Shown here one piece after another: positions 7,764 through 63,838 of a stretch of 64,000 nt of DNA. Under the pieces are notes generated by a model. That model saw nothing but the letters and a program-made list of their open reading frames with translations. It did no database searches and was not told the origin of the DNA. Position 1 is the stretch's first letter; every line of letters begins with the position of its first letter. This DNA is from Agarophyton chilense. Lineage: Eukaryota; Rhodophyta; Florideophyceae; Gracilariales; Gracilariaceae. The stretch is from assembly GCA_030374765.1 (NCBI GenBank), contig JARGXX010000115.1:124001-188000 (forward strand), written 5' to 3'. A program made the position numbers and the translations under genes.

Positions 7764-8233
7764 GGATCTACACGCCTGGAGAACTGGCCTCACCTGAGGC
7801 CAGCTTGGCCTCATATGAGGCCAAAAATTCTCTTAAAAAGTAACTGAAATTCATTCAAGATATACATTTACAAATTAAGAGCAGAAAGGAAGAAAAAAAG
7901 TCCATACATCTTTATCGTTGAGAAAAAGCCTCGGAAATCTAGTCAAACAGAGTTTTAATACTCTTCTTTAAAACAATATACGTTTGGTGTAGCAAAATTT
8001 AGAAGTCGCAAAAAAACAACATTCAAATAGTTTTGGCCTCAAACTATCGAAAACAACACATCCAAAAGAAATATCTTTTTCAATCATCTAGTGATGCATA
8101 CTTCAAATCTTGAAGCCATCAAAAGGATAGTGTTTGGCCATATGTTTTGGTTATGCAGAGCCTCTAGATTGAATTTATTGCTTAATTGGAAAGAAATAAA
8201 AAAAAAAGTCATATGAGGCCATCGGTCGTATAG
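7764..8233. repeat. AT-rich unit 1 with palindromic ends
   Basis: Begins GATCTACACGCCTG, followed by two adjacent palindromes, TGGCCTCACCTGAGGCCA (7785-7802) and the perfect TGGCCTCATATGAGGCCA (7806-7823). It ends TCATATGAGGCCA…GGTCGTATAG (8209-8233). The same start and end motifs bound the next unit, which contains a PiggyBac-like relic, so this may be a deletion derivative. No coding sequence seen. Confidence 0.5.
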
Positions 8234-8495
8234 AAACTAGTGTCTACACGCCTGCAGCACTAACATTACAAGAAGCCATGAAGCAGGCTTGGTCTCATAT
8301 GAGGCCAGTTCTATTTTCCGAAATTTTTGAAAAAAACGCTTTCTTTACTGCATGGACGTATTCTATTTTCTATGTAAAAATTTATTTTTCTAATCATGTT
8401 CCAATTGCTTCAAAGGACAGGCTTCAGACAGCTGTCTTCGAAAACATTAGGTCAGTGATCTCAAGACCGCTTGCAGACAGCAAAACACAGAGTTC

Positions 8496-9098
8496 TGTCG
8501 TATAGTGGCAAAAGGTTTGACCTTTGAGGTTGTCGATATACTACAATGACCTTGTAGGTGATGGATGCAAGGGATCATCGGCCACGCAGCTCCAGGCGAG
8601 CTACCATCTAGGTGTTTTCAGCCACGTGTAGTGTTGACATGTACCTTCTGGTCGTGTGATTGTTAGTAATTGTAATTATATTTATTTTAGTACAGTAGTG
8701 GAGTGGCCACCTGGCACTGTAGCCAGTGCTGGCCAGGTCTCTGACACTAGGTCAGAGACCGTGCCTTGCTGGAACCACTCGGGTGATCTGGAGAGTGCAG
8801 TCCAATGCATATAGGGAACTGCACCTCCCAAACACTAGTCTGAGCAAGACAGGCACTACTTGGGTCACGACGATACCTTTTGGATCATTATATCTCAACT
8901 ACCACACAGGCTTTCCCGCGCGTCGACGCCTACCATCGTTCACCTACACGGTATAGGCTAGTTGCCCCGCCGTTTGCCCCTGCGGGTTTTCACGGTTCCC
9001 TGTTACCATCGAGGTTTATTACGTCTACATTCTCAGGTTGAGCGTCACCACGCTCCCGAGACAAGGCAGTAGCAGACCCCAGAGGTGATTGTAAGACG
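8496..9098 (+). repeat. 5' LTR of element A
   Basis: Starts TGTCG and aligns end to end with 19172-19774; the terminal CGACA of the 3' copy has mutated to AGACG here. Contains TATATTTATTTTAG near 8680 and a perfect 10-bp-stem hairpin at 8736-8760 (GGTCTCTGAC, loop ACTAG, GTCAGAGACC) that is identical in the other LTR. Confidence 0.9.
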
Positions 9099-9101
9099 TT
9101 T

Positions 9102-9119
9102 TGGTCTCCCGACTTAGAA
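9102..9119 (+). promoter_or_regulatory. Primer binding site of element A
   Basis: TGGTCTCCCGACTTAGAA lies three bases after the 5' LTR. The same 18 bases follow the 5' LTR of element C at 42040-42057. The leading TGG pairs with a tRNA CCA tail; the priming tRNA was not identified. Confidence 0.75.
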
Positions 9120-14400: not shown

Positions 14401-15743
14401 TCCACTGGAGTTTGTTGCGATAGACCTTCTAGGACCACTTCCCAAAAACCAAGAATGGGTATCAGCACATTCTAATGATCACCGACAGGTTCTCGAAGCT
14501 CACGAGAGCGATACCTTTAAAGGAGACGAAGTGAACAATGCTGGCGATCGCGTTCCTCAACAATTGGGTCTACCCGTATGGTGCACCACTGTACCTACTT
14601 ACCGATAATAGTTCAAACTTGGCATCGAAGTTCTTCAAAGCAGTCTGTAACCTCTTGGGTATAAAGCACTATTTCACTACCGCCTACCACCCGCAGAGGA
14701 ACGGACAGGTCGAGCGCTTTATCCACACATTGGTATCAAGGCTACGACACTATACGGAAGAGCACCAAACTGGGTGGGATGATCTGGTGCAACCGCTCAC
14801 CTACTCCTATAACCTTCAGGTACACCGGTCAACGCATACCACTCCCTTTGATTTGGTTCTTTCGCGACACCCCCCAGGTATTATAGTGCAGGGAGATCAT
14901 ACCACCAGCACTGCAGCTGGCGCACTGACCCTTGCACAGGTCAAGCTAAGTACCCTTATGAGGTTGAGGAGGGCTCTCAAACATGCAGAGAGCCGCCTCA
15001 CTGCAGCCCAGAAGCATTACAAGGCCGACTACGACCGTAGGGTAACCAAAGTGGTCTCTGTATCTTCGGTACATTATGTCTACATAGACAAACCACCTTC
15101 AGGTAAAGGACCACAACCGGGTGATGAAGCGGACGATGAAGCTATTGATAGAGATATTAATTCGAAGCTTCTACCCAAATCAGTGGGACCTTATAAAGTA
15201 TTGAACGCATCAGACCACATCGTTACGGTTGACCAGGACGGAATACAGAATAAGATATCAATTGACCGTATTACGGTAGCACCTGAAACGGTTCAACATC
15301 GCATAGAGGCGGGCACCTCAGCCCGAGAGCCCAGAGCGGTAGCTCTGCGCACTCGACCCTCGGAGGACCCCACCCCAATTGAGGTGAGCGATGACTGTCA
15401 ACGGGATGATCCGGATTACAACCTTCTAACGGGGACGGAAATTGAAGCCCAAACGGTAACAGCGGGAGCACCCGACCTGGCTCCCACACACGACGCTCCC
15501 AACTCGGAACATAAAAACCCTCGAGGTAGCAATCCCCCGAAAATTTAGGACTAAACTTCAGAGGAATTTCCCGTTGACCGTCTGGTAGGGCACACGCGAA
15601 CCTACAATGGTCTGAAGTACACCGTATGGTGGTACGGCTGGGGGCCACAAGGAGACACCCTCAAACCCCCAGCCGCAATACCCCCACACTTCCGTATCAG
15701 ATATTGGCGCCGTCGCAAGGAGCCGATGCCTGCAGAAGGCTAA
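11457..15743 (+). pseudogene. pol: pol of element A (protease-RT-RNase H-integrase-chromodomain), interrupted
   Basis: Pol lies in the -1 frame relative to gag, as in C and D. Protease 11476-12210 has LDAAAGPN where C and D have LDTGA, so the catalytic DTG is lost. RT starts near 12510, shifts frame around 12870-13030 and has YIDDVI at 13037. RNase H follows (TDASHDQ; TDHDALRWIL) with TAG at 13637 and TAA at 14048. The integrase zinc region (H..H..CESC) is at about 14210-14340; the core shifts frame near 14460-14540, with D in LLTDNSSN and E in NGQVER. After stops at 15546 and 15552 a chromodomain remnant (EFPVDRLVGHT…VWWYGWGP) runs 15558-15743. Confidence 0.9.
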
Positions 15744-16439: not shown

Positions 16440-18523
16440 TCAAGCCTGGCGAATTCGAGCCAGCAATCCGACCACGGCCGGAGAATCCATCATAGGTTGA
16501 GGCGGAGGACGAGCAATACCCGCCAACAGAGGTCGAACTGGACCACCAACCCGCGAGGAGCTCGGTTGAGTAGGAGTCACACCCGTAGGGATAGGCAACT
16601 TACGACCTTGAGGTAACGGCTCGGACGGGAAGGGACAAGCATAACGACCAACTGGTGTCTCCACAGTACCGTGATAAGGTTCGGGGCTCGCGGGAGCTCC
16701 ATAAACAAGGGGCTCCCAGGGATAATATTGGGCGTGGCGAAGCACGATCTCCCAAGTTTCGGGATCGAAAGCCTCCCAACCTTGATGGGAATCCCAATGG
16801 TAATTCTCGCTCTGCTCGAGATACGAGTACAAATCCTTCACGGTATAATCGCTCCCCTGAACGATGTTCTTTTAACCAAATCGGAGAATATCCTGGACAA
16901 CCCTCGGAGGTATGAAGAAGATGCGACCTACAGGTTGAACACCATCTCAATATATGTCAGAGTCGGGATTACGACAATCCCAATCGATAGCGTAACGGGC
17001 GGCCTCCAGAGCCAGGATGGCAACCAACACGGTCCACTCCGAGAGGGCATTCGACCAAATGAGGTAATACCGTTCCAGGTTCCGGGAGATCTGACTCCCG
17101 AAGTACGCCAAAACAGGCGGAGTGGGCACGCTCAGCGACAACGGAACCTCATAGGACTCCCACCAATATTGTCGAAGCACGTACCCATCGCGTCTACCCT
17201 TTGTAGGTTGTGAGAAGTACTCGACGTTATGAAACATATGCATAAGGCGAGTGTAAGAGTTGCGAGTGTGAACGCGACTCTCCGTCGCAGTATCATCGCC
17301 CACCTACTACGAGCAGCCCAATTGCTAGTGGTGGAAGGCCGATTCAGGGAAACCAAGTCAGGTGAAACCGGAAGGTAGGTTTCCGGAATAGACGGGTACT
17401 GGCACACTCGCACCACCAATCGACGGTAATAATCCAGCTCCGGTTCGATGCTCACATACGGAAAGTCGCTCGGATACATCGGCGGGATGTTATACCTCAA
17501 AGGTGTATGACGCTGCCGACTCTGGTAACATTCCATTAGACCCTGACGAGGTTTAGACTCTTGGTCCTTTTTCTTCAAGAGCAATGGGACGGAGCGGAGG
17601 CGCTCGCAGTCCCAAAGAAACAAACCCAAGTAGGTATCCAATTGCGGTCTAGTCAGAGCTGCCGGCAATGACGAATTCCCCACCGCCACAGGCCAATCAT
17701 GCTTCAACAGGTCACTGTGAGTCACCTGGTCGAAGGCAATACCAAAAGATCCATACTGATTCGTCGTCCGGTTCGTCGCACTAAACGCGGGATTGTGAAA
17801 CGAATTGGTTTGTGTTTTCGGATGAAGTCCACCACTGTGTTGGTATGGGTCATCCGGAGTCTCAGGGGAGAACTCTGTCGCAGGGACAGGCACCCTGCGA
17901 AAACCAATGTTGAAAGGCGTTCGAGAAGCCGAGCTAGTCACCCTCTTCGTAATACCACCGCGTCCACGGCCACGCGATGGGCCGCTATTTGACATGGTTG
18001 GGAAGGCCGTAGCTCGACCTGACGAAAGAGGTGATGACTCGACCTCCACCGCAACGGTGAACACCAGCGGGTATTTATCCTTCTTAGGTGACGCCTCCTC
18101 GGTCCGTTCTGAGGAGACAACAAACGTATCCAACCTTTCCGGTAGTACCGACATCGACCTTTCAGGTGCAACAGTTGCCATCGTACGGGCGCGAGCGGTT
18201 CCAGACCTTTGAGGTATCGTGGAGCGGGACCAATCCGACCTTAAATGCATAACGTCAGGGGTATCAGTCCCCTCGGAATCGCCGACTTCTTTAACCTCAA
18301 CGGTAACCGGCACCTCACGTCTCTCGAGCGCTGGTGCTGCCTGTGGGGATGACCCACTCCTTCGAGGTATCGGTGGGGAATCCACAATGCCGCGCGAGGT
18401 GCGTCGATGTGGCACCGAATGGGTTCGCACGCGCGCGTGGAGGCGTCGCGATCTTCTCATAGACTTTAAGCTAAATCGGAATGCAAAACCTGAAAAAGGA
18501 CGCGCAATTACAAACGGGGCCAC
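16440..18523 (-). pseudogene. Antisense accessory ORF of element A, decayed
   Basis: Opposite-strand coding region between pol and the 3' LTR. Pieces: 18523-17132 (463 codons; an internal Met at 18460 is an alternative start), then another frame 17303-16947, then about 16930-16440 after a stop. The N-terminal third is Ser/Pro/Arg-rich. The core aligns with the antisense ORFs of C and D: a W-P-x-A-V block near the core start, the shared YWWESYEVP…PPVLAYFGS segment (C has WWSKVEVP…PPCIYYIGS), EWTVLVA and RIFFIPPRV. At least one frameshift (near 17300) and two stops make it non-functional. No known domain is recognised. Unlike C and D, its start lies about 650 bases from the 3' LTR. Confidence 0.75.
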
Positions 18524-19171
18524 TCAAAACCAATAAGATCTCACAACGGGAAGCTTCCACCACGGACCCAGGCCAATACCTCAATGGTTGTATCGACGCA
18601 GGCTCAGGCCCAACAGGCGCCACGAATCCATCCTTAAAAGGTAGACAAAACCTGAAAGGTCGAGAAGCCAGGAAACCTTCAAGAAAAGCCGGACAGCACG
18701 ATTACGGTCGCTATGCTGCCAATTAAGGGCAGCAATACCTGAAGGGTTGTCGAGCCGGGGGAACGACGAGACGGGACGGCGCGCGTAGGGACCTAGGAGG
18801 AAAATGAAATTTGAGCAACCGAGAAATGTGCGAGACCAACTTGGTTAAACAGTGGGCTATGCAGAAGCAGAATCGCAAGCACGCAGGGGCGCACTACCTA
18901 AAAGGTGTCCGCGAGCACGCTATTGACACTTCTTCGTCCTCATGACAGTCCCTACCTGAATGGTTGTCGCTCAATTCGTGCGCCGCCGTCGTCGCTCGCA
19001 CGCTCCAACCGACGCTGGCACCGAGTTCTGAACCTCAAGAGATCGCGCGTTGCGCACCGTGAGCAACCGCCGGCGGATACCACTCCGATGCCCGCCCCGC
19101 TGTCGCTCGCTATAACTTTATGGTTTGATGGAAGAAGAAACCAGGCCTGTCTCACGGGTAGGAACGGGGTC
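18524..19171. other. Gene-free stretch of element A before its 3' LTR
   Basis: No coding sequence supported. It contains recurring short CCTGAAAGGT/CCTGAATGGT-like motifs (for example near 18650, 18736 and 18955) and ends in a G-rich tract (GGGTAGGAACGGGGTC, 19156-19171) that fits the polypurine tract for plus-strand priming. Confidence 0.5.
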
Positions 19172-19774
19172 TGTCGTATAGTGGCAGAAGGTTTGACCTT
19201 TGAGGTTGTCGATATACTACACTGACCTTGTAGGTGATGGATGCGAGGGATCATTGGCCACGCAGCTCCGGGCGAGCTACCATCTAGGTGTTTTCAGCCA
19301 CGTGTAGTGTTGACATGTACCTTCTGGTCGTGTGATTGTTAGTAATTGTAATTATATTTATTTTAGTACAGTAGTGGAGTGGCCACCTGGCACTGTAACC
19401 ACTGCTGGCCAGGTCTCTGACACTAGGTCAGAGACCGTGCCTTGCTGGCACCTCCCGGGTGATCTGGAAAGTGCAGTCCATTGCATATAGAGAACTGCAC
19501 CTCCTCCACACTATTCTGAGCAAGACAGGCACTACTTGGGTCACGACTATACCTTTTGGTTCATTGTTTCTCAACTACCACACAGGCTTTCCCGCGCGTC
19601 GACGCCTACCATCGTTCACCTACACGGTATAGGCTAGTTGCCCCGCCGTTTGCCCCTGCGGGATTTCACGGTGCCCTATTACCATCGAGTTTTATCACGT
19701 CTACCTTCTATGGTTGAGCGTCACCACGCTCCCGAGACAAGACAGTAGCTCACACCAGAGGTGATTGTACGACA
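19172..19774 (+). repeat. 3' LTR of element A
   Basis: 603 bp, TGTCG…CGACA with inverted-repeat ends. Same length as the 5' LTR with about 35 substitutions by eye. The hairpin at 19412-19436 is unchanged. Confidence 0.9.
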
Positions 19775-20114
19775 GTTTCAAACCTTACTGAGTTCAGTGA
19801 AACTCAAAAACTCGTACAGGAGCTCGAATAATTCTAAAACTTTTTACGGTCGAAAAACGCATTTGTATCCTCTCTAACAGCAGACAGAATAAGTTGACAG
19901 ATGCTAGAAGGATAGTTTCGTCAGACCATAATGCATCTAGCAAGTTTAAAAAAGTAGATTGAATTAGTATGGACCTTAAAATATTTTGAAATTTTGTTTA
20001 ATACTTTTTAAAAAATGCCTCTGAAAATTTCTACAAACACATTTTGACTCATATAAATTGTAATTGTTGACGTACATTTGTTCGAATTAAGATGCATGTC
20101 ATGAAGGTAATCTA

Positions 20115-39700: not shown

Positions 39701-41126
39701 AGCCCAAGGATTCGACCAGTTTTCCCTCGTCAACTCGTACGCACGTGAAGAAGAAACTTTCCTAAAGACGGCACGCCCCGTCTATCACCGAGACGTTCCC
39801 CCTGGTGCCAACGTCATTAGCAGCCACACACTGTACAAACTGAAGCACAACGACGATAACAGTTTGAAACTGAAGGCGCGCATCGCACCTCATGGCAACG
39901 AAGACGCACTCAAGAATTTCCTGAGTACTGACTGCTCTACGTGCCCGCCAACCGGTCTGCGCGTACTAGAGTCTATTGCTTCTCTGTTTGGTTGGAAATT
40001 GTACAAGGCCGGTGTCAAAGCCGCCTTTTTACGAACCGGCGCAGCTCAGTGTGATGTTTACGTTCGCCCGCTGAAAGAAAGCGCTATGAAGTCCTCCCAT
40101 GTTTGGCTCTTGCTCACTGCAGCCTATGGTTTGGTCAACGCAAATGAAAAATGGCAAAGTCAGTCCGATACAGTAATGATAGACCTCGGTCTAACACAGT
40201 CCAAGTTTATCCCGCAACTCTTCTACAAGAAAAAGGATGGTAAGCTAACACTGCTCGTGGCAAAAATTGTGGATGAACTCAAAGCTGCCGGTACTGAGGA
40301 CAACGCTCTCCGCTTTCTAGAAGAATTTGACAAGAAGTTCAAGTTTGGCGAAATCAACAGCGGCCCTGGGAAACTCCGCTATTTCGGCATCAACACAGTG
40401 CAACATGATGACTTTTCGATTGAAACCAACGCAGAAGACAAGCCTAACGCTCTTTCTGAATATTCTCTCACCCGCATTCGCCGAAAGCAGTCCGAAGACA
40501 CGATGAACAAGTTAGAGAAGTCAGCCTTTTCTTCAACCAATAGCTCGATCGGATGGATTGGCACCGCTGCTACACCCTTCTGTTCATTTTATGAGAGTTA
40601 CCTCCAGCAAAAGGCACCCGAACTCAAAGTCTCACACCTCGTTGAGCAAGCCTCAATCGTTCAAAAGCTCAAGAAGCTTGGCACTGTGATTGTCTATCCA
40701 CGCCCTTCGCATGACAAAGCCTACGAGCTCTCTGTTCTAGTTTTTGCTGATGCATCGCGCATTGACGACGTTGGCCAACTCGGCATTGTTACTGGTTTAC
40801 TCCTTGGTCCGATGCAGAAGGACGCGATCTACCATGTTGTATCCTGGGTTTCCCACAAAGCCAAACGCCCCGTTAAGAGCATCCCTGCTGCTGAAATCTT
40901 TGCCGCCGCCGAAGGAATTGACGATGGAAAGATTATCGGCAATGCCTACAACGAACTGCTTCCTACCCGTGTACGTCAACGCCTCTGTGTCGATTCGAAA
41001 GATCTGTTCAGTTCTCTTTCGACGCAAAAGAACTCTATCGACGAGTCAATTCGAGGAGACGTCAGCTCGCTTCGCTACGAGTTTCAGACTGGAGCAGTGG
41101 ATAGTATCTCCTGGATACCTGTGTAG
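36751..41126 (+). pseudogene. Element B: Ty1/copia gag-pol, interrupted, 3' end cut off
   Basis: Starts MGHQATPSPKDL at 36751. Stops at 36880-36882 (TGA) and 37090-37092 (TAA) break gag. The frame then runs 37105-38295 with Gag, one CCHC-like knuckle (CDTCGKYGHWKRNH, last Cys replaced by His) and protease (LLDSGAPYS). Pol continues in the -1 frame from 38187: integrase zinc region (HKHVCGH…CTAC), integrase core (SVDHFF; GDKEFN; NAIESKHN), RT with AKIVDEL in place of the family VDD, and RNase H (VFADAS; PAAEIFAAAEG; VDSKDLF). The product ends at SWIPV because the LTR of element C starts at 41122. Length and domain order are copia-like but the lineage is divergent. Confidence 0.9.
38190..38196 (+). 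promoter_or_regulatory. Possible -1 frameshift site in copia B
   Basis: TTTTTTC read as T TTT TTC in the gag-protease frame, exactly where the pol frame takes over in -1. It fits X-XXY-YYZ, but a one-base loss in a T-run would look the same, and the copy is dead in gag. Confidence 0.35.
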
Positions 41127-42037
41127 AGCAACGCCCAGTTAGGGGATACTTGAAGATGCAACTCATAGAATGAGGATTGAACCCTCCGAGGGTTATGACT
41201 ATTATCCCCTCTAAGGTGTGCTGAGGTGGCACTGTTTTCTGGTTAGAGTTCGCCTATGAAGTGAAAATTCGGATGGCCCATGGTTGGATTGGCCCCGTGA
41301 TACACGTGGCTTAATTTTGGCACCGATTTTCGGATATTTGTTAGAACGTTGGACTTTTGGGCCCTGACAGTTGGATCTCCACGTGTATGGCCCTGAGCAG
41401 GTGTGCACTACTGTAGAGTTTAGATAGTGGGCCCTACTTAGGGAGACGAGATCTGACAATCCGAAGCTCAGAGTAAAGGGGAACCAAGGTTGGTGTTCGA
41501 TACCTTTAGAGGTTCTTCGTCGCCATCGTTTCGGCCTTACAACCCGGAACGGGCTCTGGTTAGCAACGCCTGCGTAGGGACACGACTCCACTTGGAGAGT
41601 GTCCACGTTTGGGTTCCGTGCAACCACCCCCTTGGGACCGCTCAGACGACCTGCGTGCACGATACCCCGTGGGGGTTCTGCTTACTTGTTGCGTGCTTTT
41701 TGTGTTTCCTTTCGAGGACAGGTTTTCGCCCCTGTATTGGGTTTCTTTTGTTGTTTCGCCCCTTTTCTGGTTCTCGGGTCCGGTGCCTGTTAGTGCCCGA
41801 CCCTCGCCCCGTTTTTCCTCTTCGCCGGATTTTCCCCCATTCTTTGGGATACCCATACCCATTCCCGATCCAACGGTTTCTACCCCTCACCTCCGTCGGT
41901 ACTGCCGGAATCCCCCGTGGGAGTTACACCCCACACTACGGGTGGAACGGAGGGCTCTGTCTCTGAGTCTGCCTCCCTCAGGGAGCGAGGCTTCGAACAC
42001 CTTGAGAGCACTTCCCTTCGCCGGGTTTTGCTCCACA
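41122..42037 (+). repeat. 5' LTR of element C
   Basis: 916 bp, collinear with 51326-52239. The end is fixed by the CCACA terminus followed by AG and the primer binding site. Confidence 0.9.
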
Positions 42038-42039
42038 AG

Positions 42040-42057
42040 TGGTCTCCCGACTTAGAA
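42040..42057 (+). promoter_or_regulatory. Primer binding site of element C
   Basis: TGGTCTCCCGACTTAGAA, identical to the site in element A although the LTRs of A and C are unrelated by eye. Confidence 0.8.
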
Positions 42058-43563: not shown

Positions 43564-46500
43564 ACTTGGGAGTCTCCCCTGCGGGAGGGGCGTCTTCTAA
43601 GCCGGAGTTGAAGACGCCCGAGGCGCTCCAGCTTCGCTCCCCAGCTGTGACTATCCTTTCAAGAAGAACGGCTGACACCGACGTTAACTCGGGATACTTT
43701 AGTGTCCTCCGTCGCCCGTGGATACGGTCCCGTAATCTCCGTATTCCGGATCGAGTTATGGTAATGGCCAAGCGGAATTATAAAGTATTCGCTGACTTCG
43801 GCCTGTCAAACCAGTTTATGGTTCGTCAAATATCTGTCCTGGATACAGGAGCCGCTCCTAACTTAATTCATGTTGAATTGTTACACCCGCTGCTCCGGGT
43901 TCAAGTTCGTACCAGTCCACGTTTGGATATCGCCGATGCGAACAACAACCCGCTACGGACACTGGGTATAATTTCCCTCATGGTGAGGTTAGGCTCCTAT
44001 CTCGTTCAACTAGAGTTTATTGTATGCAAGTCACTTGCAGCACCAGTCATACTGGGTTGTGACTTTTGCGACCGCTTCGTGGAAGCCATCCGTCCTCGGA
44101 ATAGAACTGTGGAACTCGAAGACGGGTCTACGATCCCAATCGTTCGTAAACCCTTACAGGGAGCAGCGCGAACACGCGTTCCTCTCCCTGTCGCGCAGGA
44201 ATCTGTGAAGAAGGACGCGGTGTCTACACGGGTAAAGGTTTCGAAGTCAGTGGCTATCCCGCCAGAAACCCAGGTTTTGGTCACAGTTGTTTCCAAGCAA
44301 ATTGGTGTGCATGTGGTACAACAGAACCCGTCTCTGTATACGCGGCGTCAACTCGCCCTTGCCAATGGGGCTGTCTCCGTGGAACCGGATAAACCTTTCA
44401 AGGTTTTGGTAGCCAACTTTGGAAAGACAACGCAGCATTTGGTCAAACACCAGATCCTGGGTTCTGTTCTTCCACACCCGCATGCGGTCGTACCTACAAA
44501 GATCTCTATCGCAGAGGTCCTTGGTGTGGCGGACCCTAAGGAGGGGGAGGACACTGCCGAAATCGCGGAAGACGGTGAGCATACGACTGCAGCTCCACAC
44601 CCTGAACACTTCAAACCTCAGGAGGTTACGGCCCCTATCACAGGAGCAGACCAGACGGATCCTGTTCAGGAATTGGAGAAATGGGATCTCAACCATGTAC
44701 CCGCATCTCATCGGGAGAAGCTGAGGCACATGCTTCGTGAATTTACCCCCATGTGGGATGGTTCCCTTGGAACTATTGGGATTACAGAACACCGCATCGA
44801 CTTGTTACCGAACACTCGGCCTATTGCCCAACACCCTTACAGGGCTGGACCGAAAGCTCGGGAAGAGGAGAAATCTCAGGGGGAGAAGATGCTTAAAGCG
44901 GGCGTAATTCAACCTGCCCAGTCCGCTTGGGCCTCACCAGTGGTGTTAGTTCCGAAACCGGATGGATCGTGGCGTTTCTGCATCGATTACAGACGCCTGA
45001 ACGAGGTAACCATTAAGGATGTGTACCCGATCCCTCGGATGGACGAATACATCGACTCCCTTGGGAGCGCTACTGTTTTCTCTACCCTCGACGCCAATTC
45101 GGGCTACTGGCAAGTCCCTATTAGGGAGGAAGATCGAGAAAAAACGGCTGTCGTGTGTCATCAAGGACTTTTCCGATTTTGGAGGATGCCTTTTGGGTTG
45201 ACAAATGCCCCCGCAACGTTTCAACGGGCGATAGACATTCTGTTGGCTCCCTTCAAGTGGAGGACGTGTCTAGTGTATTTAGACGACATTATTGTCTTCT
45301 CCAACAACCTGGATGACCACCTCGAACACGTCAGGGACGTAATAAAGATACTCCGCGACGCGGGAACCACCTTGAAACTCAAGCAGTGCGAGTTTTTCAC
45401 CGATTCGGTTAAGTATCTGAGTCATATCATCCGTCCCGGACGGCTTTCAATCGATGAAGTACGAGTGAAATCCTTGAAGGAAGCAAAAAACCCGAAAACT
45501 CAAACGGAGTTGCGATCCTTCTTAGGTCTGTGTAACGTGTATCGCCGATTCGTCCCGAACTTTGCGGATATTGCCACCCCCCTCAACAGGCTCCTGGCGA
45601 AGGGACAACCAGTTGAACTGGAACCTTTTGGCGACGCGGAAGCGTCTGCCTTCACGGCACTGGTGAATGCCGTAACATCACCGCCAATGTTGGCTCTACC
45701 CAATCCTGGGCTCCCTTACGAAGTGGACACCGATGCTAGTGCAAACCAAGTAGGGTGTGCACTGTTCCAATTCTCTGAGGATGGTGAACGTCACCCTATT
45801 GGGTACTGGTCAAGGTCTCTGAATGTACATGAAAGGAACTACTCGGTCTCCGAGAAAGAATGTTTAGCCGTTGTGTGGGCCTTAGCTACACTTCGCCCCT
45901 ATCTGTTGGGTACTCGTTTCAAAGTCCATACGGACCACGCATGCTTGCGTTGGCTCCTGGAGATCTCCGAACCCTCGGGCCGCCTTATGCGCTGGCGTCT
46001 CCGACTGTCGGAATTCGACTTTGAGATCCTGTACAAGAAAGGGAAGCTGAACACTCAGGCTGATGCACTATCCCGCTTGGGAACCACAGCGCAAACGGAA
46101 CCCTACGAGGACGATGACATCCCATGTTTTATGGTATCGGACCTCGAGGGAGGGGCTCAACCGCTGACGGATGATGTTTGTGACGATATACTCGTCAATG
46201 AGAGTCTGGATTCGCCGACCGGCTCTTTTATACCTATCTCTCCAGAGGAGATGATACGCGAGCAACAGCTCGACCCATTCTGTACACGGATTCGGGCTCG
46301 CCTCAACGGAGGATTTCAATTACCTTTCGAGGACGACGATCAGGGTTACCTAATCAGGACCGTTGGACCTCGCCCGAGGATAGTGGTGCCGCACACCCTA
46401 CAACAAAGGGTATTACACCTTACTCACTATTTGAAGGTTGGCGCCCACCCCGGGGGAAGAAAACTGTACTTCACGTTGAGAAGGGACTTTTAATGGCCGG

Positions 46501-48261: not shown

Positions 48262-48406
48262 CACCGAGCCAATCAAAAGGCTCTGACGACCAACCGTCGC
48301 GCAAACCGCCTCACCGAGCCAATCAAAAGGCTCTGACGACCAACCGTCGCGCAAACCGCCTCACCGAGCCAACCAAAAGGCTCTGACGACCAACCGTCGC
48401 GCAAAT
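48262..48406 (+). repeat. 50-bp tandem repeat, about 2.9 copies
   Basis: Units start CACCGAGCCAA at 48262, 48312 and 48362 and are almost identical. A 50-base period is not a multiple of three, so expansion shifts the pol linker frame upstream of the chromodomain. Confidence 0.9.
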
Positions 48407-49387: not shown

Positions 49388-51283
49388 CTACGGAAAGCCC
49401 GAGGAGGGACCCGCCCCACCGTTGGGATTCTGACCCTGATGGTACGCCGAGGCGAAAGCCAACATCTGGCTCACATCCGTCATACCCGGGGGAATCGGAA
49501 TGCCAGCGTTCACGAGGCCTTGTCGCACACTATCCGCTTGCGGAGTGGCAACGGGCGCCTGCGCAAGGGTGTTCACACCCCACCCGGGGGGAGCAGATGG
49601 ACCGCCACCGGATGCATTCGCCGCCGCAGCTGAGGTCGTTCCCACTGGTTGGAAGGGTGCAGATGGCTCCACAGGGAGTACTCCACTAGGAGCTGGCATG
49701 TCATTATCAAATGCTGGATCGTCCAGGTCTACTGGAGGCTCGTACTCGTAATCGTCGGTATAAATGAACCCCGTCGGGTGTCCCACCGGCATCGGTCGAG
49801 GCGAGTCAATCAGCGCCCGTGCTTGCGCCGCGCTGATGCGAACCCCTTCGAAGGGATTGTAATAGACCCAGTTACCGGAGCCCGGATCGTACCGGGCAGG
49901 AGACTTGTCTCGCGCGGATCCTTCCCCTGCGGGCTGATTTGCCACTGGAACTCGATCCCATTGGGTGTTGTCGATCACGTCCAAGATTGGATACAGGTCC
50001 TGCACGTTGCTGACCGAACCCAACGCTGGGACAAGGTCGATTTGACGCATGATGGTCCGTAGCATCGGAGGAATATACCAGATACGGAAATGGTCATGAG
50101 CATCCCAGAGGAGGTGCGCCGCTACGCGGGCTGCCCACTCGGCTGCAACGAGGGCCCAGTATCCCGAGTTCGGGTCGTGCATCAAACGAGACCCGATATA
50201 GTAGATGCATGGGGGCAGTTCAGCAAAGCACCCTCGGGGGACCTCGACCTTACTCCACCAAGCTGGAAGGGGCACGAATCGCCCAACCTTCGCCGTGTTA
50301 CGGATACGCTCCAGTTCCACGTGAGGATACGGGACAAGGAACCCGAAACGGGAGCGCGAGCGGCGCTCGAAGCGCACGCGTCGATCGAACCCATACTGGG
50401 TAAACTGCCGTTGAAGGTACCTGAATTCAGCCCGAAGGATGGGACGACTCCATTGGAGCATATCTTCTCGGAGAGGAAAACCCGGTCCGCTGAACTCGGC
50501 TTCGGGAAAGGCTGCCAGGTTATCCCCGTAGGATACCTCACCGTACGTGCGGTAACAGGCGACATGGAACCCGTACTCCGGGGGAACCAGATGGTCAAAG
50601 CGTGACCTCTCCAATCGCTGGTAGGCCAGAGCCGCCATCGCTGCGCGCGCCTTGTCCAGGGACTCCCCGCGACCGCGGTATAGATACTGAGGCTCTATGG
50701 CTACCCGCGCCCTCCAATCGGGAGAACGTACAACCTCGTCAGGTAGGCCACCCGGCAATAAGCCGTCCTCCACGTAGGAGTCGATGAGCTCATCGTCGCG
50801 AACCGCTGTCGGATGAAACCACGGAGCGCGGGAATATATCACCGGTTCGGTAAGGGGACTACACCTTCGAAAGGATTCGTTTGAGATCGAACCTCTGGAG
50901 TTTGCTACCGAGGGCATCGCATGAGCGGAGTTCCACGCCACCGCGTTAATGTCCACATCCTCCTGAGGATGTCGGTTGCTCGCCGAGGCGGAAGGTTCGG
51001 TACCTGACGGAGCCGCATCCAAACCGGAGAAATATCCACCCTGCTGGGGAGCTTCGTTGTCCGCCGGCGCGGAGGCCGATGGCCCCGAGAGTGGGTTGAG
51101 GACGTATGGGTTCATTCCCTTGAGAGGACTGGTTGAGACTGCTGTTGCGAGAAGTTGCTTATCGCCGAAAGTCGGAGGAGTAGAAGAAAGTTGTACCGAT
51201 GTGCCGGTTTTGTGGCGATCCTCAGAAGTGGTGAAGGACCCCATTGGGAGAGAAGTATGTATAGTGACCGGAAAGCGAGACAC
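49388..51283 (-). CDS. Antisense accessory ORF of element C, intact (631 residues)
   Basis: Uninterrupted opposite-strand frame between the chromodomain and the 3' LTR; its ATG (51283) is 43 bases from that LTR. Residues 1-150 are Ser/Pro/Ala-rich. The core, about 152-475, aligns with the D antisense ORF: 14 of 19 positions identical over RAPWFHPTAVRDDELIDSY, 13 of 17 over QWSRPILRAEFRYLQRQ, 17 of 33 over residues 374-406 (GYWALVAAEWAARV…WYIPP). A Pro/Gly/Ser-rich tail follows. No signal peptide, transmembrane helix, zinc motif or known domain is seen. It stays open in an element whose gag and pol are broken. The function is unknown; a regulator of the element, or a chromatin or RNA-binding factor, is speculation. 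Confidence 0.75.
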   Translation of the reverse strand: MSRFPVTIHTSLPMGSFTTSEDRHKTGTSVQLSSTPPTFGDKQLLATAVSTSPLKGMNPYVLNPLSGPSASAPADNEAPQQGGYFSGLDAAPSGTEPSASASNRHPQEDVDINAVAWNSAHAMPSVANSRGSISNESFRRCSPLTEPVIYSRAPWFHPTAVRDDELIDSYVEDGLLPGGLPDEVVRSPDWRARVAIEPQYLYRGRGESLDKARAAMAALAYQRLERSRFDHLVPPEYGFHVACYRTYGEVSYGDNLAAFPEAEFSGPGFPLREDMLQWSRPILRAEFRYLQRQFTQYGFDRRVRFERRSRSRFGFLVPYPHVELERIRNTAKVGRFVPLPAWWSKVEVPRGCFAELPPCIYYIGSRLMHDPNSGYWALVAAEWAARVAAHLLWDAHDHFRIWYIPPMLRTIMRQIDLVPALGSVSNVQDLYPILDVIDNTQWDRVPVANQPAGEGSARDKSPARYDPGSGNWVYYNPFEGVRISAAQARALIDSPRPMPVGHPTGFIYTDDYEYEPPVDLDDPAFDNDMPAPSGVLPVEPSAPFQPVGTTSAAAANASGGGPSAPPGWGVNTLAQAPVATPQADSVRQGLVNAGIPIPPGMTDVSQMLAFASAYHQGQNPNGGAGPSSGFP

Positions 51284-51325
51284 CCGCGGCTCGGAATGTT
51301 CTTCCTTGTCTTAAGGAGGGGTAGA

Positions 51326-52239
51326 TGTAGAGCAAGGCCCAGTTAGGGGATACTTGAAGATGCAACTCATAGAATGAGGGTTGAACGCTCCGAGGGTTAT
51401 GACTATGATCCCCTCTAAGGTGTGCTGAGGTGGCACTGTTTTCTGGTTAGAATTCGTCTATAAAGGAAAATTCGGATGGCCCATGGTTGGATTGGCCCCG
51501 TGATACACGTGGCTTATTTTGGCACCGATTTTCGGATATTTGTTAGAACGTTGGATTTTTGGGCCCTGACAGTTGGATCTCCACGTGTATGGCCCTGAGC
51601 AGGTGTGCACTACTGTAGAGTTTAGATAGTGGGCCCTACTTAGGGAGACGAGATCTGACAATCCGAAGCTCAGAGTAAAGGGGAACCAAGGTTGGTGTTC
51701 GATACCTTTAGAGGTTCTTCGTCGCCATCGTTTCGGCCTTACAACCCGGAACGGGCTCTGGTTAGCAACGCCTGCGTAGGGACACGACTCCACTTGGAGA
51801 GTGTCCACGTTTGGGTTCCGTGCAACCACCCCCTTGGGACCGCTCAGACGACCTGCGTGCACGATACCCCGTGGGGGTTCTGCTTACTTGTTGCGTGCTT
51901 TTTGTGTTTCCTTTCGAGGACAGGTTTTCGCCCCTGTATTGGGTTTCTTTTGTTGTTTCGCCCCTTTTCTGGTTCTCGGGTCCGGTGCCTGTTAGTGCCC
52001 GACCCTCGCCCCGTTTTTCGTCTTCGCCGGATTTTCCCCCATTCTTTGGGATACCCATACCCATTCCCGATCCAACGGTTTCTACCCCTCACCTCCGTCG
52101 GTACTGCCGGAATCCCCCGTGGGAGTTACACCCCACACTACGGGTGGAACGGAGGGCTCTGTCTCTGAGTCTGCCTCCCCCAGGGAGCGAGGCTTCGAAC
52201 ACCTTGAGAGCACTTCCCGTCGCCGGGTTTTGCTCCACA
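51326..52239 (+). repeat. 3' LTR of element C
   Basis: 914 bp, preceded by the polypurine tract (near 51310-51325). If the antisense ORF is expressed, its promoter probably lies in or near the left end of this LTR. Confidence 0.9.
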
Positions 52240-52385
52240 AGTAGTGAAAACCAACCCTGGTCCATACACGTATCCTGCGTGTAACCCCCGCTTTGCACGT
52301 CCATCCGTCCACTACGGTTCTACTGTTGAACCTCAAATATCCTACCTTCTAAGGTGTCTAAAATACTAGAAACCAATTTTACTCA

Positions 52386-57713: not shown

Positions 57714-57735
57714 AGGGAGTCTCCCCTTTGGGAGA
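57701..57735 (+). promoter_or_regulatory. Gag-Pol -1 ribosomal frameshift signal
   Basis: GGGAAAA at 57701-57707 is read G GGA AAA in the gag frame, a canonical X-XXY-YYZ heptamer. The gag stop follows at 57711. A hairpin TCTCCC-CTTT-GGGAGA lies at 57720-57735, 12 bases after the heptamer. Shifting -1 enters pol without a stop. C and A keep the same -1 relation, and C keeps the hairpin (near 43573-43588), but their heptamers are degraded. Confidence 0.65.
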
Positions 57736-60700
57736 GGCGTCCTCAGAGTTGAGGCTGACGACGCCCGAGGCGCCGATGCCTCGCTCCCCGGTGAGAATCC
57801 TGACTAGGAAGGACACCGCAGACGCGGATTCTAAACACCTCGGTGTTTTGCGTCGACCGTGGATACGGATTAGAAATAACCGGATCCCGGATAGAGTCTT
57901 GGTAATGGCCAAGCGTAACTACAAGGTTTACGCTGACCTTGGTCTGCACACGCAGTTTATGGTGAGACATCTCACTGTACTGGATACAGGTGCTGGGCCG
58001 AACTTTATTGTGGAATCAGTTTTACCCCCGCCATTGCGGTCACTCATCCGTTCTGAAACGGTACCCGACGTGTCGGACGCCAATAACAACCCGTTGAAAA
58101 CGGCTGGTGTGATCGACCTGGTCGTCAGGCTAGGGCGGATGGTGGTTAAACTAACTTTTATTGTGTGCCACTCGCTGGCCGCGCCAGTTATACTGGGATG
58201 TGACTACTGTGACAGGTTTGTCGACGCCATCCGCCCACGCCTTAAGCAGGTGGAACTTGAGGACGGATCGACCGTCCCCATTGTTCGTCAACCGCTGAAG
58301 CGGGCATCGAGGAAACACGTTCCTCTACCTGCTGCGCAGAAACCCACACCGGCGAACCGGGATTCTACGAAGCTACGCGTTGCCTCGTCAGTCACCATAC
58401 CCCCGGAGAGCCAGGTTATGGTTTCAGTCAATTCCCGTCAACACGGTCTTCGGGTTGTTCAGCCCTTGCCGTCGTTGTACGAGAAATTTCAGTTAACCGT
58501 TGCGAACGGAATCGTGCAAGTCACGCCGAATTCCCCTTTCAGGGTGTTGGTTGCCAACCTGGGGAAGGCTCCCCAGACGCTGGCAAAGAACCAAGTCATT
58601 GGGTCTGTGACGCCGCACCCGCTCGCGATGCTCCCTACAAAGGTGACGGCTGCCGAAGTACTCGGGATAACCCCCTCTACCGAGGATGGTCTCCCGGTAT
58701 CCGGTGCAGAAACCTCCGGGGAGGCACAGCAGTTGGCGCTCGATAAAACCGTCAAGACGGATGCATTTCCGACCTCGTCGGTTCCCACACCTGACACCAG
58801 GGCACAGCCTACGAGCTACGATACGATAGACCCGATCAAGGCCCTCGAGGACCTGGACCTGAGTCATGTACCGGTCTCACACCGGGACCGCTTACGCGGA
58901 ATGCTACGCGAGTTTACCACAATGTGGGACGGCTCACTGGGTGAGATCAATACAACCGAACATCGGATAGACTTGCTACCGGACGCACGTCCGGTTGCAC
59001 AACCCCCTTACAGGGCGGGACCGAAAGCTCGGGAGGAGGAAGAATTTCAGGTGGACAAGATGCTCCGTGCTGGAGTCATCGAGCCCGCCCAATCTCCTTG
59101 GGCTTCACCGGTGGTGCTGGCCATCAAGGCTGACGGCACTTGGCGGTTTTGCGTTGACTACCGCCGCCTCAATGCCGTCATCGTGAGGGACACCTACCCG
59201 ATTCCGCGCATGGACGAGTGTATAGACTCGCTCGGGGACGCTACCGTGTTTACGGCTCTGGATGCTAACTGGGGCTACTGGCAAGTCCCAGTCCGGGAAG
59301 AGGACCAAGACAAAACCGCGTTTATTTGCCACTCGGGTTCCTACCGCTTCAAGCGGATGCCGTTTGGTTTAACCAATGCACCGGCCACCTTTCAAAGGGC
59401 AATAGACATACTGATGTCGCGTTTCAAGTGGCGCACGTGCCTTGTCTACTTGGACGACATCATTGTCTTTTCCAGAAACCTGGACGATCACCTGACCCAC
59501 GCGCGGGACGTGATGACCGTACTGCGAGACGCAGGAATAACCCTCAAGTTGAGAAAGTGCGAGTTCTTCACCGACACGGTGAAGTATCTCGGGCACGTCA
59601 TCCGTCCAGGACGGTTAATGATCGAACAAGTTCGTATCAAGTCCCTCTGCGAGGCGAAGGAGCCCCGTACTCAAACGGAGCTCCGATCCTTTTTAGGTCT
59701 GGTCAACGTCTATAGACGGTTTATACCGAGTTTCTCGGATATCGCCGCTCCGCTAAACGCGCTACTGCGGAAGGGCCAGCCACCGAAGCTTGCGCCATTT
59801 ACCACCGATCAGTCGGAATCTTTTCGCTCCTTGATTAAGGCAGTTACGACAGCTCCCATCCTATCCTTGCCCAAACCTGGGCTTCCCTACTCCATCGAAA
59901 CCGACGCCAGCGACCACCAGGTGGGCTGCGCACTGTTCCAAACCACCTCCGAGGGGGAACGCAAACCAATTGGCTATTGGTCCCGCACGCTGAACGTCCA
60001 CGAGCGCAACTACTCGGTCTCCGAGAAGGAGTGCCTCGCAGTGGTCTGGGCGCTATCCACTCTGCGCCCATACCTTATGGGCGTTCATTTCACCGTGTAC
60101 ACGGACCATGCCTCGTTGAGGTGGCTGCTGAACATCGCAGATCCTTCTGGCCGCTTAATGCGGTGGCGCCTCCGCTTAGCGGAATTCGACTTCGAGGTCG
60201 TCTACAAGAAGGGTGTCCAGAACACCCAAGCAGACGCCCTCTCTCGATTACCTACGACAGGTGAAGCACTTGCCGACCCGGAGGTCGACGAGATCCCGTG
60301 CTTTACCTTGGAAGGGGAAACACCGACGGAGTCGGATTGGCCCGAAACCGGGGAAGACACCATGGAAATGGATGAGCTACTCGCAGCGCGCGAGAATGAA
60401 ACACCCGTACCCGTGGCACCATGGCTTAGAAGCCCCGCCGTGGTACCGCACCCCTCACGGGGTCTCTCCGATATACCGACTTTATCGGAACCACCGGCAA
60501 TGCCGGAAACACCTGGCCCTCGCGGCCAGCTACCCTTACGGGCGCCGCGCAGCGGTATTTATACCCGACATGCGGTTAGCCCACCATCACCCGTCGCTCC
60601 GTCTAAGGAGGGGGAGGGGACCCGCTCAATCGCGGAAGCATCGCCGTCGCAACGGAAGTTTAACCGGACACCCCGGGCAGGGCCCCCGAGCGGGCAACCG

Positions 60701-61708
60701 GCATCGTCGCCGGACGCCAATCCGCTCCCGCGGGACGCGGCGGTCAACCCGACCGCTACGCAACCCCGCATGGGGAACCAAGGCGCTCGAAGACCCGAAG
60801 CCGGGAACCGAGACCCTACGGACGCTCCGCATCGCGTGGAAGCAACTGAGGGCTCCCCGCACATTCGCGGTCGCACACCGAGCGTTTCGGTCGATACCGG
60901 TACTCCGGCGGGCGCTGCGCAAGCAAGTCTAGCGAGCCACTCCGTTGAGAACGGTACGAACCCCATGGGGGAGAAGGGGCGCGACGACAAGTCGAAAACC
61001 GCCTCCCTTGCCGAACAATCGGAGCCAACCGTCCGCGACGGCCCGACCACCCATCCTCAAGGTCACGTGACCCGGGCGGGAGATCAGACCAATGGGCACC
61101 CGGCATCCCGGTCATTGGCTGACAGTCACCCCGCGGAGGCGGATCGCCGGGACGGTGAACCACTCACCGCCCACGGCGCACCGCACAGCGGAAACTGCCC
61201 ACCAATGGGAACGCCGCATGCCACAACACAAGCGAAGGCCTCCGGCGAACCGTCACCAAGACGGAAGGACCCGTGCAAACTGGCGGTAAGGGCGGACTTC
61301 AGGGAAGCCCCTACCGCCCAGCGGAAACACAACCCGGCCGCGCCGGCAACTTCCGCGAAGCGGTACGGCAGCCCCGGCAACCCGGCAACAACCGCAGAGC
61401 GGAATGACAAACCGGGTGACCCGGAACAGGCGACGACGAGCCCAGCACCACGCGGCGCTGAGGCTCGGGTCACCACCACCCGGCAAGGCCGGCAAGTTTA
61501 CGTGCAGGAGTACGTCCTCGACCGAATCGTTGGACATAGCTACGATGGGCACGGGGTGCTCCAGTACCGGACCCGCTGGTACGGATACGGGCCGGAGTGG
61601 GACACTCCGGAGCCCATCGAGCACCTCCCGCGCTCTGCGGTAATGCGATACCACCGCCTTGCGGGGACCGCACTCCCAGCCACGCTGGAAAACGCCCAAG
61701 AGGGATAA
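57714..61708 (+). CDS. pol: pol of element D: protease-RT-RNase H-chromodomain, no integrase
   Basis: Open for over 1326 codons in the -1 frame of gag; no AUG is needed if frameshifting supplies the start. Protease LDTGAGPN (D86), RT with YLDDII (about 574-577), RNase H (ETDASDHQ; TDHASLRWLL; ADALSRL). The next block, normally HHCC zinc and DDE integrase, is absent: after about residue 890 the frame goes straight into the Pro/Ser-rich linker (PHPSRGLSDIP, matching PHPERGLTDLP in C after its integrase) and a C-terminal chromodomain (about 1258-1310, QEYVLDRIVGHS, RWYGYGP, IEHLPRSAVMRYHR). All catalytic motifs that remain look intact. Such a product could reverse transcribe but would need integrase in trans. 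Confidence 0.9.
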
Positions 61709-62041: not shown

Positions 62042-63838
62042 TCATTCCTCCGCACGAGGTGGATCCCCGCCCAGGCGGTTGGCTAAGACATCCCGCATGG
62101 CGGCCACATCACCCGAGATCTCGGAAGGGCGAAGCCCCACCTCCCGAAGGAAGCGCGCGATGACCTCGCCCCGCTCCGCGCCAGCGGCGGTTGCGGGCGG
62201 GCCCGCCACCGATGGAGTCGGATAGGAATCCGTTCGCACGGCATCAGCAGCCCCGGATGGAACCGCACCACCGTATTCAACGGACTCCTCACCGGCCTCG
62301 CCGGACTCGTCACCCTCCATCGGAGCGTAACCCGGATCCTCCGGTTCGTTGTCGACCATCGGGTCACCATCCGCATAGTCGCGGTAATAGTCGCTCGAGT
62401 CGACATACCCTCGCGGGTGGTCGGCCGGGACTTCACGCGGCGCATGCCGGCTGGCTTCCGCTCCCTCGCGGCTGATCTCGTGGTACTCCCAGGGGTCGAA
62501 GTAGATGAAATCCCCCACTAGCGCGGTATTCCTCCCCAGTCCGGGGCCAGACCCGCGACGCGGTTGAATGCGTTGGGAGTTCTCCAGCGGGACCTCATCC
62601 CACTGGACCCCCTCCACAAAGTCGAGGAGGCCCAGCATCTCTTCTTCGTTCGCCTCGCCCCCGAGGGGGATGCACATGTCCAAACGGCGGATCGCAGCCT
62701 GCACACGCGGTGGCACGTACCACAATCGGTATTGGTCGTACGCCTCAGCGAGGATAAAAGCCGCAGTGCGGACGGCCCATTCGCTTACCACGACGGACCA
62801 CCACCCCGACTGGGGATCGTTCAAGAACGACGACCCGACATAGGTGAAGACTGGGGGCAGCTCAATGAAGCAACCCCAGCACGCCTCCAAGGAGGACCAC
62901 CAGTCTAAAAGACTGACGTACCGACCACGTCGGTGAGCAGGCGCGATGCGCTCAATCTCCGTGTTCTGGTACGGTACGAAATACCCGGTCCGGGCCCGCC
63001 AACGCCGCTCATCGCGGATGAAGTTTTGAAGGAAGTTCGAGTGCGACTGCCGCCGTTGGTAGCGGAACTCTGCCCGAAGAATCGGTCGTACCCAGCAAAG
63101 GGCTTCTTGCCGAGCGATCGGTGTGCCCCTCCAAGCGAGGGTTTCCAATCCGTTTAGACGGTCACAGTACGACATTTCCCCGCGAGTGCGGTAAAGGTGG
63201 ACGTCGAATTCGACCTCTGGCGGTATCGGGAACTCGAAAGGCGCCCGATGGTGCCTGAGATAAGCGATCCGCACGAGCGCAGCCTGAGCCTCCGCAGAGT
63301 ATTCACCGCGTCGGCGGAGTATGTGGTGTACCGGGATGGCGATACGATTACGCCAATCCCAGGACATGGTCACCACGCCGGGCAGGTCGCCCGGGAGCAT
63401 CTCCGAATTATCGGTGTAGGACTGGATCAAATCCTCGTCGCGGACAGCCAATGGGTGAAACCAAGGCGCATACCGCAACATCGCGGAGCCATGCCGAGTT
63501 CTCGGATTTGCACCCGCAAGGGCGTCGTAGGTCGGCCACTGCGGTGGGTCCGCCTGTCCGCGAAAGCGGGCGCCAATACGGCTGTCTTCGTACGCGAGGT
63601 TGACGGCCGGAGTTCGGTTGGTAACATCCCCAGGGTGGGGCGCGGACCGGAAGCCGGTGGAACCGCCAAGGGCGGGAGTCGCGGATGTGTTATGACGGTC
63701 GGGGTTGGACATGGTGCGCGTTGGTGTGCTGTGGTGGGAATCGGAGGGGGAGGGCGTGCGTGGGATCCTTGGTGAAGGAGGTGTGTTGGTTTCCGGAGAC
63801 CCGGTGTCGGACGCGCTCTTATCATGACGAGCTGCCAT
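62042..63838 (-). CDS. Antisense accessory ORF of element D, intact (598 residues)
   Basis: Open opposite-strand frame; ATG at 63838 lies 48 bases from the 3' LTR. Residues 1-120 are Ser/Thr/Pro-rich; the core (about 122-450) matches the C protein block for block: YAPWFHPLAVRDEDLIQSY, CWVRPILRAEFRYQRRQ, GYFVPYQNTEIERI, WWSSLEACWGCFIELPP, SEWAVRTAAFIL, RLWYVPP. The tail is acidic and Gly/Pro-rich. Conservation is in this frame while the plus-strand frames across it show no shared protein, which supports coding here. Many Trp/Tyr/Arg and several W-P/W-Y motifs suggest a globular, possibly nucleic-acid or protein-binding fold. No family recognised. Confidence 0.75.
   Translation of the reverse strand: MAARHDKSASDTGSPETNTPPSPRIPRTPSPSDSHHSTPTRTMSNPDRHNTSATPALGGSTGFRSAPHPGDVTNRTPAVNLAYEDSRIGARFRGQADPPQWPTYDALAGANPRTRHGSAMLRYAPWFHPLAVRDEDLIQSYTDNSEMLPGDLPGVVTMSWDWRNRIAIPVHHILRRRGEYSAEAQAALVRIAYLRHHRAPFEFPIPPEVEFDVHLYRTRGEMSYCDRLNGLETLAWRGTPIARQEALCWVRPILRAEFRYQRRQSHSNFLQNFIRDERRWRARTGYFVPYQNTEIERIAPAHRRGRYVSLLDWWSSLEACWGCFIELPPVFTYVGSSFLNDPQSGWWSVVVSEWAVRTAAFILAEAYDQYRLWYVPPRVQAAIRRLDMCIPLGGEANEEEMLGLLDFVEGVQWDEVPLENSQRIQPRRGSGPGLGRNTALVGDFIYFDPWEYHEISREGAEASRHAPREVPADHPRGYVDSSDYYRDYADGDPMVDNEPEDPGYAPMEGDESGEAGEESVEYGGAVPSGAADAVRTDSYPTPSVAGPPATAAGAERGEVIARFLREVGLRPSEISGDVAAMRDVLANRLGGDPPRAEE

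What the first reader, a model, noticed from the sequence alone, without database searches (positions are those of the whole stretch)
49388..51283. Conserved antisense ORF family in three chromodomain gypsy elements (A, C, D)
Seen: A (18523-16440), C (51283-49388) and D (63838-62042) each carry a long minus-strand ORF between pol and the 3' LTR, with the same core blocks (for example 14/19 and 13/17 identities between C and D in two motifs; a matching WW…VP…PP…G-S segment in A). C and D are fully open; in C, gag and pol are already broken. Known: extra antisense ORFs occur in a few plant gypsy elements and HTLV-1 encodes HBZ antisense, but I recognise no homology to those. Inference: a lineage-specific accessory gene under protein-level constraint, of unknown function.
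Basis: partly seen in the sequence, partly recalled or inferred. Interest (0 to 1): 0.88.

Follow-up and report, generated by a model that had tools for sequence, protein, structure and literature searches.

The report
Antisense gene in seaweed retrotransposons
Several families of jumping genes in a red seaweed carry, on their reverse strand, the same extra protein gene; its protein sequence has been conserved across deep divergence, it matched no protein family or solved structure that was searched, and in one branch it contains almost no lysine, which hints at evasion or use of the cell's protein-disposal system.

Summary
It is open in C and D; in the window's A copy it is frame-shifted, but three of six sister copies read through both parts. 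A third large family (E), outside the window, has it too. Between families, codon positions 1 and 2 are 50-64% identical and position 3 only 28-34%: protein-level selection on this frame, not the opposite one. Relatives occur in Gracilariopsis chorda and Agarophyton chilense. No Pfam, NCBIfam or PDB-sequence relative reached a cut-off. A confident AlphaFold2 model of the C core (pLDDT 83, pTM 0.85) has no Foldseek match at E 0.001 in PDB or BFVD. New here: the D protein has one lysine in 598 residues and its G. chorda relative one in 617; base composition does not explain that. Antisense ORFs at this place are known from plant Retand, Grande and RIRE2 elements, so the kind is known; this protein family was not found in print in the searches made. 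Most likely it is a trans-acting accessory factor expressed from the inner edge of the 3' LTR; the mechanism is inferred, and no transcript evidence was available.

The parts
49388..51283 (-). antisense accessory gene of element C (631 aa from GTG; first ATG at 51244)
   Evidence: open frame; relatives; codon-position test
49754..50881 (-). conserved core of the C protein (376 aa modelled)
   Evidence: alignments A3, A5; AlphaFold2 pLDDT 83.4, pTM 0.85
62042..63838 (-). antisense accessory gene of element D (598 aa, one lysine)
   Evidence: P0006 of Gracilariopsis chorda 349 identical of 560 aligned
62384..63487 (-). conserved core of the D protein
   Evidence: alignments A3, A5
17132..18523 (-). 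N-terminal open part of the antisense gene of element A
   Evidence: one frame through both parts in L060, L061, L063
16788..17303 (-). core-homologous part of the A antisense gene, in another frame and interrupted in this copy
   Evidence: tblastn E 4e-7 to 8e-7 with C, D and P0001; frames
41122..42043 (+). 5' LTR of C (98.5% identical to its 3' LTR)
   Evidence: ends read
51326..52245 (+). 3' LTR of C; its inner edge lies 82 bases from the antisense ATG
51313..51325 (+). purine-rich tract next to the 3' LTR of C
   Evidence: sequence
8494..9101 (+). 5' LTR of A (94% to its 3' LTR)
19170..19778 (+). 3' LTR of A
43566..46493 (+). C pol: reverse transcriptase and RNase H
   Evidence: Pfam PF00078, PF17917
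46503..47183 (+). C integrase core
   Evidence: Pfam PF00665
48772..48984 (+). C chromodomain region
   Evidence: 56% to the D chromodomain piece
57728..61708 (+). D pol with RT, RNase H and a weak chromodomain match, integrase core missing in this copy
15561..15734 (+). A chromodomain region
   Evidence: 39% to the D chromodomain piece

Best explanation
Shown: this is a real protein-coding accessory gene of one lineage of chromodomain Ty3/gypsy elements in gracilarialean red algae, read from the strand opposite to gag-pol and lying between pol and the 3' LTR. Its protein has a variable N-terminal part, a conserved core of about 375 residues that is predicted to fold mainly into helices, an acidic C-terminal part and a small C-terminal motif. 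Inferred: it is transcribed from a promoter at the inner (U3) edge of the 3' LTR and makes a soluble trans-acting factor that serves its own element's propagation by controlling expression of the element or by countering a host silencing or degradation step. Its fast evolution relative to gag and pol, and the lysine avoidance in the D branch, fit a partner-specific or host-facing role better than a structural or enzymatic one. My weights: protein gene under selection 0.95; integral accessory gene of the element 0.9; regulatory or host-facing soluble factor 0.5.
For: Codon positions 1/2/3 are 0.58/0.64/0.34 identical for C-D, 0.50/0.55/0.31 for C-E and 0.53/0.53/0.28 for D-E; over the aligned codons only the antisense frame is free of stops, and it has by far the best score. 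Same place in A, C, D and E, downstream of a chromodomain region (E checked in 3 loci). 13 proteins found in 5.8 billion; the six with a name are from Gracilariopsis chorda and Agarophyton chilense. The order of divergence follows RT: D-C 76% RT and 42% antisense; D-A 57-65% RT and 27% antisense. It changes faster than gag (57%) and protease (55%) between C and D. No strongly hydrophobic segment shared by the family. Acidic C-terminal part, pI 4.05-4.22 in C, D and E. D lysine desert.
Against: No transcript data of either strand. The antisense promoter is inferred from position only. Within-family dN/dS is high (0.56-0.75) and the opposite wobble frame is alike. No domain, fold or motif assigns a biochemical activity. 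Low lysine in C, E and A is largely explained by base composition (P 0.065, 0.056, 0.107). Three of the five AlphaFold2 models were poor (48.8-61.2). Whether the database relatives lie antisense in LTR elements of their own genomes was not seen.
Confidence: 0.55

Rival explanations
1. The antisense ORF is a coding-symmetry by-product: a real sense-strand protein on the + strand imposes conservation, and the minus frame is open by chance and base composition.
For: Within families the opposite-strand wobble frame has dN/dS like that of the antisense frame, and many D copies carry open stretches of 411-417 codons on the sense strand.
Against: Between families the sense wobble frame has 14-27 stops over the aligned codons and a third to a half of the score; the antisense frame has no stop. 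Position 2 is more conserved than position 1 in two of three pairs and tied in the third, as expected for the antisense reading.
Confidence: 0.03
2. A second structural gene: a capsid-, matrix- or env-like particle protein, expressed antisense.
For: A long protein of a retroelement; A (L063) and P0004 each have one 19-residue stretch with mean hydropathy above 2.0.
Against: The elements already have a gag with relatives in A, C and D. No 19-residue stretch above 1.5 in C, D, E, P0001-P0003 or P0005-P0013. No fold match at E 0.001 to solved or viral structures.
Confidence: 0.15
3. The antisense transcript matters, not mainly the protein: it regulates the sense RNA by pairing, and the ORF is retained for another reason.
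For: Non-coding antisense RNAs of mobile elements are discussed in PMC7264820 (passages).
Against: An RNA role alone would not produce position 1/2 conservation with a nearly saturated position 3. Both roles can coexist.
Confidence: 0.07
4. A captured host gene whose protein keeps its host function (transduction).
For: Host-type domains are known in LTR elements, for example an m6A demethylase domain in orchid elements (title and abstract start of PMC9289625 in a search listing).
Against: No relative outside this family among the 7,999 candidates scored, and none above cut-off in Pfam, NCBIfam or PDB sequences. Deep divergence within the lineage argues for old age.
Confidence: 0.12

Closest known systems
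Antisense aORF-3R of plant LTR elements (Retand, Grande gene23, RIRE2, PvRetro13)
   [quoted passage not shown] function unknown; a promoter upstream of gene23 is reported (PMC7264820 passages).
   Different: Most Retand clusters encode the Transposase_28 domain PF04195, which PMC11963269 describes as present only in flowering plants (passages); none of the 13 sequences of this family that I scanned matches it or any other Pfam model above cut-off. Retand is a non-chromovirus lineage; these elements have chromodomain regions and live in a red alga.
HBZ of HTLV-1
   Same: Antisense gene with a promoter inside the 3' LTR (PMC7264820 passages).
   Different: HBZ is a bZIP factor (recalled); no bZIP match here.
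Lysine-desert proteins of the ubiquitin-proteasome system, and lysine-poor viral proteins and toxins (as described in PMC10169902 and PMC10665810, passages)
   Same: A lysine-free run of 591 residues (D) and 610 residues (P0006), seen in two genera, arginine kept. Far beyond the 150-residue or 50% definition of PMC10665810.
   Different: The D run covers the conserved core, which is predicted folded (modelled for C only); no E3, UBL or UBA domain found. C, E and A are only lysine-poor.
VANC anti-silencing proteins of VANDAL DNA transposons (recalled, not searched)
   Same: Element-coded accessory protein that evolves fast (recalled).
   Different: Different class of element; no sequence test made.

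Membership tests
Chromodomain Ty3/gypsy (chromovirus) elements | RT-RNase H-integrase order with a chromodomain after integrase | tested here: met
   RT and RNase H in C and D, integrase core in C; integrase in 3 of 3 other D copies; chromodomain region in A, C, D and 3 E loci by similarity to D; the Pfam Chromo match on D itself is 20.0 bits, below the 25.1 cut-off
Plant-type antisense aORF-3R | long ORF between pol and 3' LTR, antisense to gag-pol, in many copies | tested here: met
   (3' LTR itself defined only for A and C)
Plant-type antisense aORF-3R | transcribed antisense | not testable with these tools
   no RNA-seq available
Retand TRP28 protein | Transposase_28 domain PF04195 | tested here: not met
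   Pfam-A scan of 13 sequences (C, D, A piece 17132-18523, P0001-P0008, E from L055, A from L063): no match above cut-off; P0009-P0013 not scanned
HBZ-like bZIP | bZIP domain | tested here: not met
   same 13 sequences
Lysine-desert protein (D branch) | lysine-free run of at least 150 aa or half the sequence | tested here: met
   591 of 598 and 610 of 617 residues
Lysine-desert protein (D branch) | desert exceeds base-composition expectation and is conserved | tested here: met
   0 of 4000 simulations for D; 1 lysine mismatch of 211 against P0006
Lysine-desert protein (C, E, A) | desert exceeds base-composition expectation | tested here: inconclusive
   P 0.065, 0.056, 0.107 for lysine count; longest runs not exceptional
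Ubiquitin-system component | E3, adaptor, UBL or UBA domain | tested here: not met
   no Pfam domain above cut-off, no fold match
Env-like protein | transmembrane segment | tested here: not met
   hydropathy scan of 17 sequences; only A (L063) and P0004 have a stretch above 2.0
Env-like protein | signal peptide | not tested
   no predictor was run

The most novel reading that the evidence does not exclude
The protein is a retroelement-coded adaptor with a fold not yet in the PDB that works on the host's ubiquitin system: it brings a host silencing or restriction factor to a ubiquitin ligase and, in the D branch, has lost its own lysines so as not to be tagged in the process. It would be a counterpart in chromoviruses of retroviral accessory proteins such as Vif (recalled), placed on the antisense strand and kept since before the split of Gracilaria and Gracilariopsis.
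Probability: 0.12. Interest if true: 0.9.

Novelty: new variant of a known kind. Interest (0 to 1): 0.62.

Why it matters
Antisense accessory genes of LTR elements have been described in flowering plants since the 1990s, and a 2020 review still gives no function (PMC7264820 passages). A second protein family at the same place, without detectable relation to the Retand one, in red algae suggests that this slot evolves repeatedly and does something useful. The D-branch lysine desert gives a concrete handle: it predicts behaviour of the protein in a ubiquitylation assay, so a function becomes testable. If the fold is really new, a structure would also add a fold from mobile DNA.

Tried and rejected
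Pfam, NCBIfam, PHROGs and PDB sequence searches gave nothing above cut-off. A first AlphaFold2 run on the full C protein with 6 sequences was poor (pLDDT 41.8) and was not used. Foldseek against PDB and BFVD and the VIA second look of 34 chains gave no match; this does not prove that the fold is new. Tandem repeats as possible binding sites: three short arrays, one of 2.9 copies of 50 bases at 48262-48405, not followed. Selection within families is weak and is told as such: position-3 share among shared D variants 35 of 70 against 127 of 349 private ones, P 0.043; no such difference in E (98 of 264 against 314 of 851). The next 1,500 bases beyond the window, searched against 52-58 kb, gave no LTR match, so the LTR pair of D is not defined; in the best alignments D copies stay alike for about 280 bases beyond the antisense start. 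No target-site duplication was seen for C (read by eye). The C-terminal motif was aligned but not searched on its own. A test of lysine gain in shared (older) D variants is less telling than that in private ones: 1 of 36 is lysine, and with that rate the D-P0006 result has P 0.018.

Full report
Source. The window is bases 124001-188000 of contig 115 of a 79.8 Mb assembly in 135 contigs. The database proteins nearest to C by identity are four of Agarophyton chilense, 80-96% identical over 28-43% of the core query. Gracilaria chilensis has a published assembly of 76.07 Mb in 138 contigs with 48.9% GC and 66.2% repeats (PMC10388701, passages). So the source is most likely that seaweed (the two names as synonyms: recalled) or a close relative; this is inference.

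The elements. C spans LTRs at 41122-42043 and 51326-52245, 98.5% identical; A spans LTRs at 8494-9101 and 19170-19778, 94% identical. RT, RNase H and, in C, integrase are present. A chromodomain region lies at the end of pol in A, C, D and in the three E loci checked. The D copy in the window lacks the integrase core, but three of three other D copies fetched have it, at 72-75% identity to C's. The antisense ATG of C (51244) lies 82 bases from the inner edge of the 3' LTR, with a purine-rich tract between. The LTRs of D and E were not defined.

The gene. C and D are open, 631 and 598 aa. A is interrupted in the window: its long ORF and the core-homologous part lie in different minus frames. 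Of six other A copies fetched, L060, L061 and L063 have one frame of 677, 574 and 779 codons through both parts. A third large family, E, found with P0004 as query, has an ORF of 608 codons (L055) at the same place. Matches to P0007 at 47-51%, many with frames of 652 codons, suggest a fifth family, not fetched. Stop-to-stop frames of at least 586 codons among fetched copies, which are the best-scoring ones and so not a fair sample: 4 of 8 C, 17 of 20 D, 6 of 30 E.

Selection. Protein-guided codon alignments of C, D and E give third-position identity of 28-34%, near what unrelated bases would give, and 50-64% at positions 1 and 2; over the aligned codons the antisense frame alone is free of stops. 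That is decisive for a coding function of the minus strand. Within families the picture is weak: dN/dS 0.56, 0.59 and 0.75 for C, D and E, with 0.51, 0.63 and 0.77 for the opposite wobble frame (bins), as expected if most differences are post-insertion. Between C and D, RT is 76% identical, RNase H 71%, gag 57%, protease 55% and the antisense protein 42% over 395 columns: it is constrained but fast.

Distribution. Three protein searches, the last with a core profile, found 13 proteins in all; six carry a name, from Gracilariopsis chorda (2) and Agarophyton chilense (4). Each search scored only the 7,996-7,999 candidates sharing most words, so distant relatives can be missed. P0006 of G. chorda matches the 71 places scored in this genome at 57-71% identity. 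Four Gracilaria species alone are said to have diverged about 100 million years ago (abstract start of PMC12502185 in a listing), so presence in two genera implies great age if the gene was inherited vertically, which was not tested beyond the agreement of RT and antisense distances.

Lysine. D has one lysine, at residue 7, then 591 residues without any; P0006 has one, at residue 7, then 610 without any. Codons simulated from D's own position-specific base composition never gave so few or so long a run (0 of 4000). The 20 D copies hold 0 to 5 lysines in this ORF. Private changes in D copies are to lysine in 14 of 237 cases without stops (14 of 240 with stops), against 1 of 211 mismatches between D and P0006: P 4e-5. 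Against the pooled private changes of C, D and E (40 of 877) P is 6e-4, and against shared D changes (1 of 36) 0.018. Against mismatches of four other protein pairs without D (36 of 1,046) P is 0.005; the pairs C-D (4 of 214) and D-E (8 of 361) were left out of that pool because they contain D. C, E and A (L063) are lysine-poor too (1.1, 1.2, 1.7%, against 3.0-8.9% for six gag and pol pieces of A, C and D), but base composition explains much of it: P 0.065, 0.056, 0.107; summed without D, 27 observed against 41.4 expected, P 0.01. Papers on lysine deserts link such runs to evasion of ubiquitylation and to components of that system, and one warns that some long runs occur by chance (PMC10169902 and PMC10665810, passages).

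Interpretation. The gene is an antisense accessory gene of a retroelement lineage. Its kind is known from plants (PMC7264820, PMC11963269, passages); its protein shows no Transposase_28 match. I rate a soluble regulatory or host-facing role as most likely; a link with ubiquitylation is the boldest reading and rests on the D branch alone. Eight literature searches on red algal elements, Gracilaria genomes or antisense ORFs, with lists capped at 10 to 20, showed no title or abstract start that describes this gene; the library holds open-licence PMC papers only, so a description elsewhere cannot be excluded.

Noticed in passing
window 57728-61708 and L066-L068: The window's D copy has lost the integrase core while keeping an open antisense gene; three of three other D copies fetched keep integrase.
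   Followed up: partly
window 62042-63838 (-) and protein P0006: Near-complete lysine desert of the D antisense protein, shared with a Gracilariopsis chorda protein.
   Followed up: yes
window 42040-42057 and 9102-9119: A and C share the same primer-binding-site-like stretch right after the 5' LTR; the tRNA was not identified.
   Followed up: no
window 48262-48405: Tandem array of 2.9 copies of a 50-base unit within the 3' part of C's pol region, upstream of the chromodomain region.
   Followed up: no
G000:C68:3138181-3158347: Three D-family antisense genes at a regular spacing of 9197 bases with identical scores, which suggests tandemly arranged element copies.
   Followed up: no
window 30098-31564 (+): A 488-aa cysteine-rich ORF that looks like a host gene rather than an element gene (no domain search made).
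   Followed up: no
window 24896-28708 (-): A gypsy gag-pol ORF of 1270 aa; no match to the antisense family was found near it in the window search.
   Followed up: no
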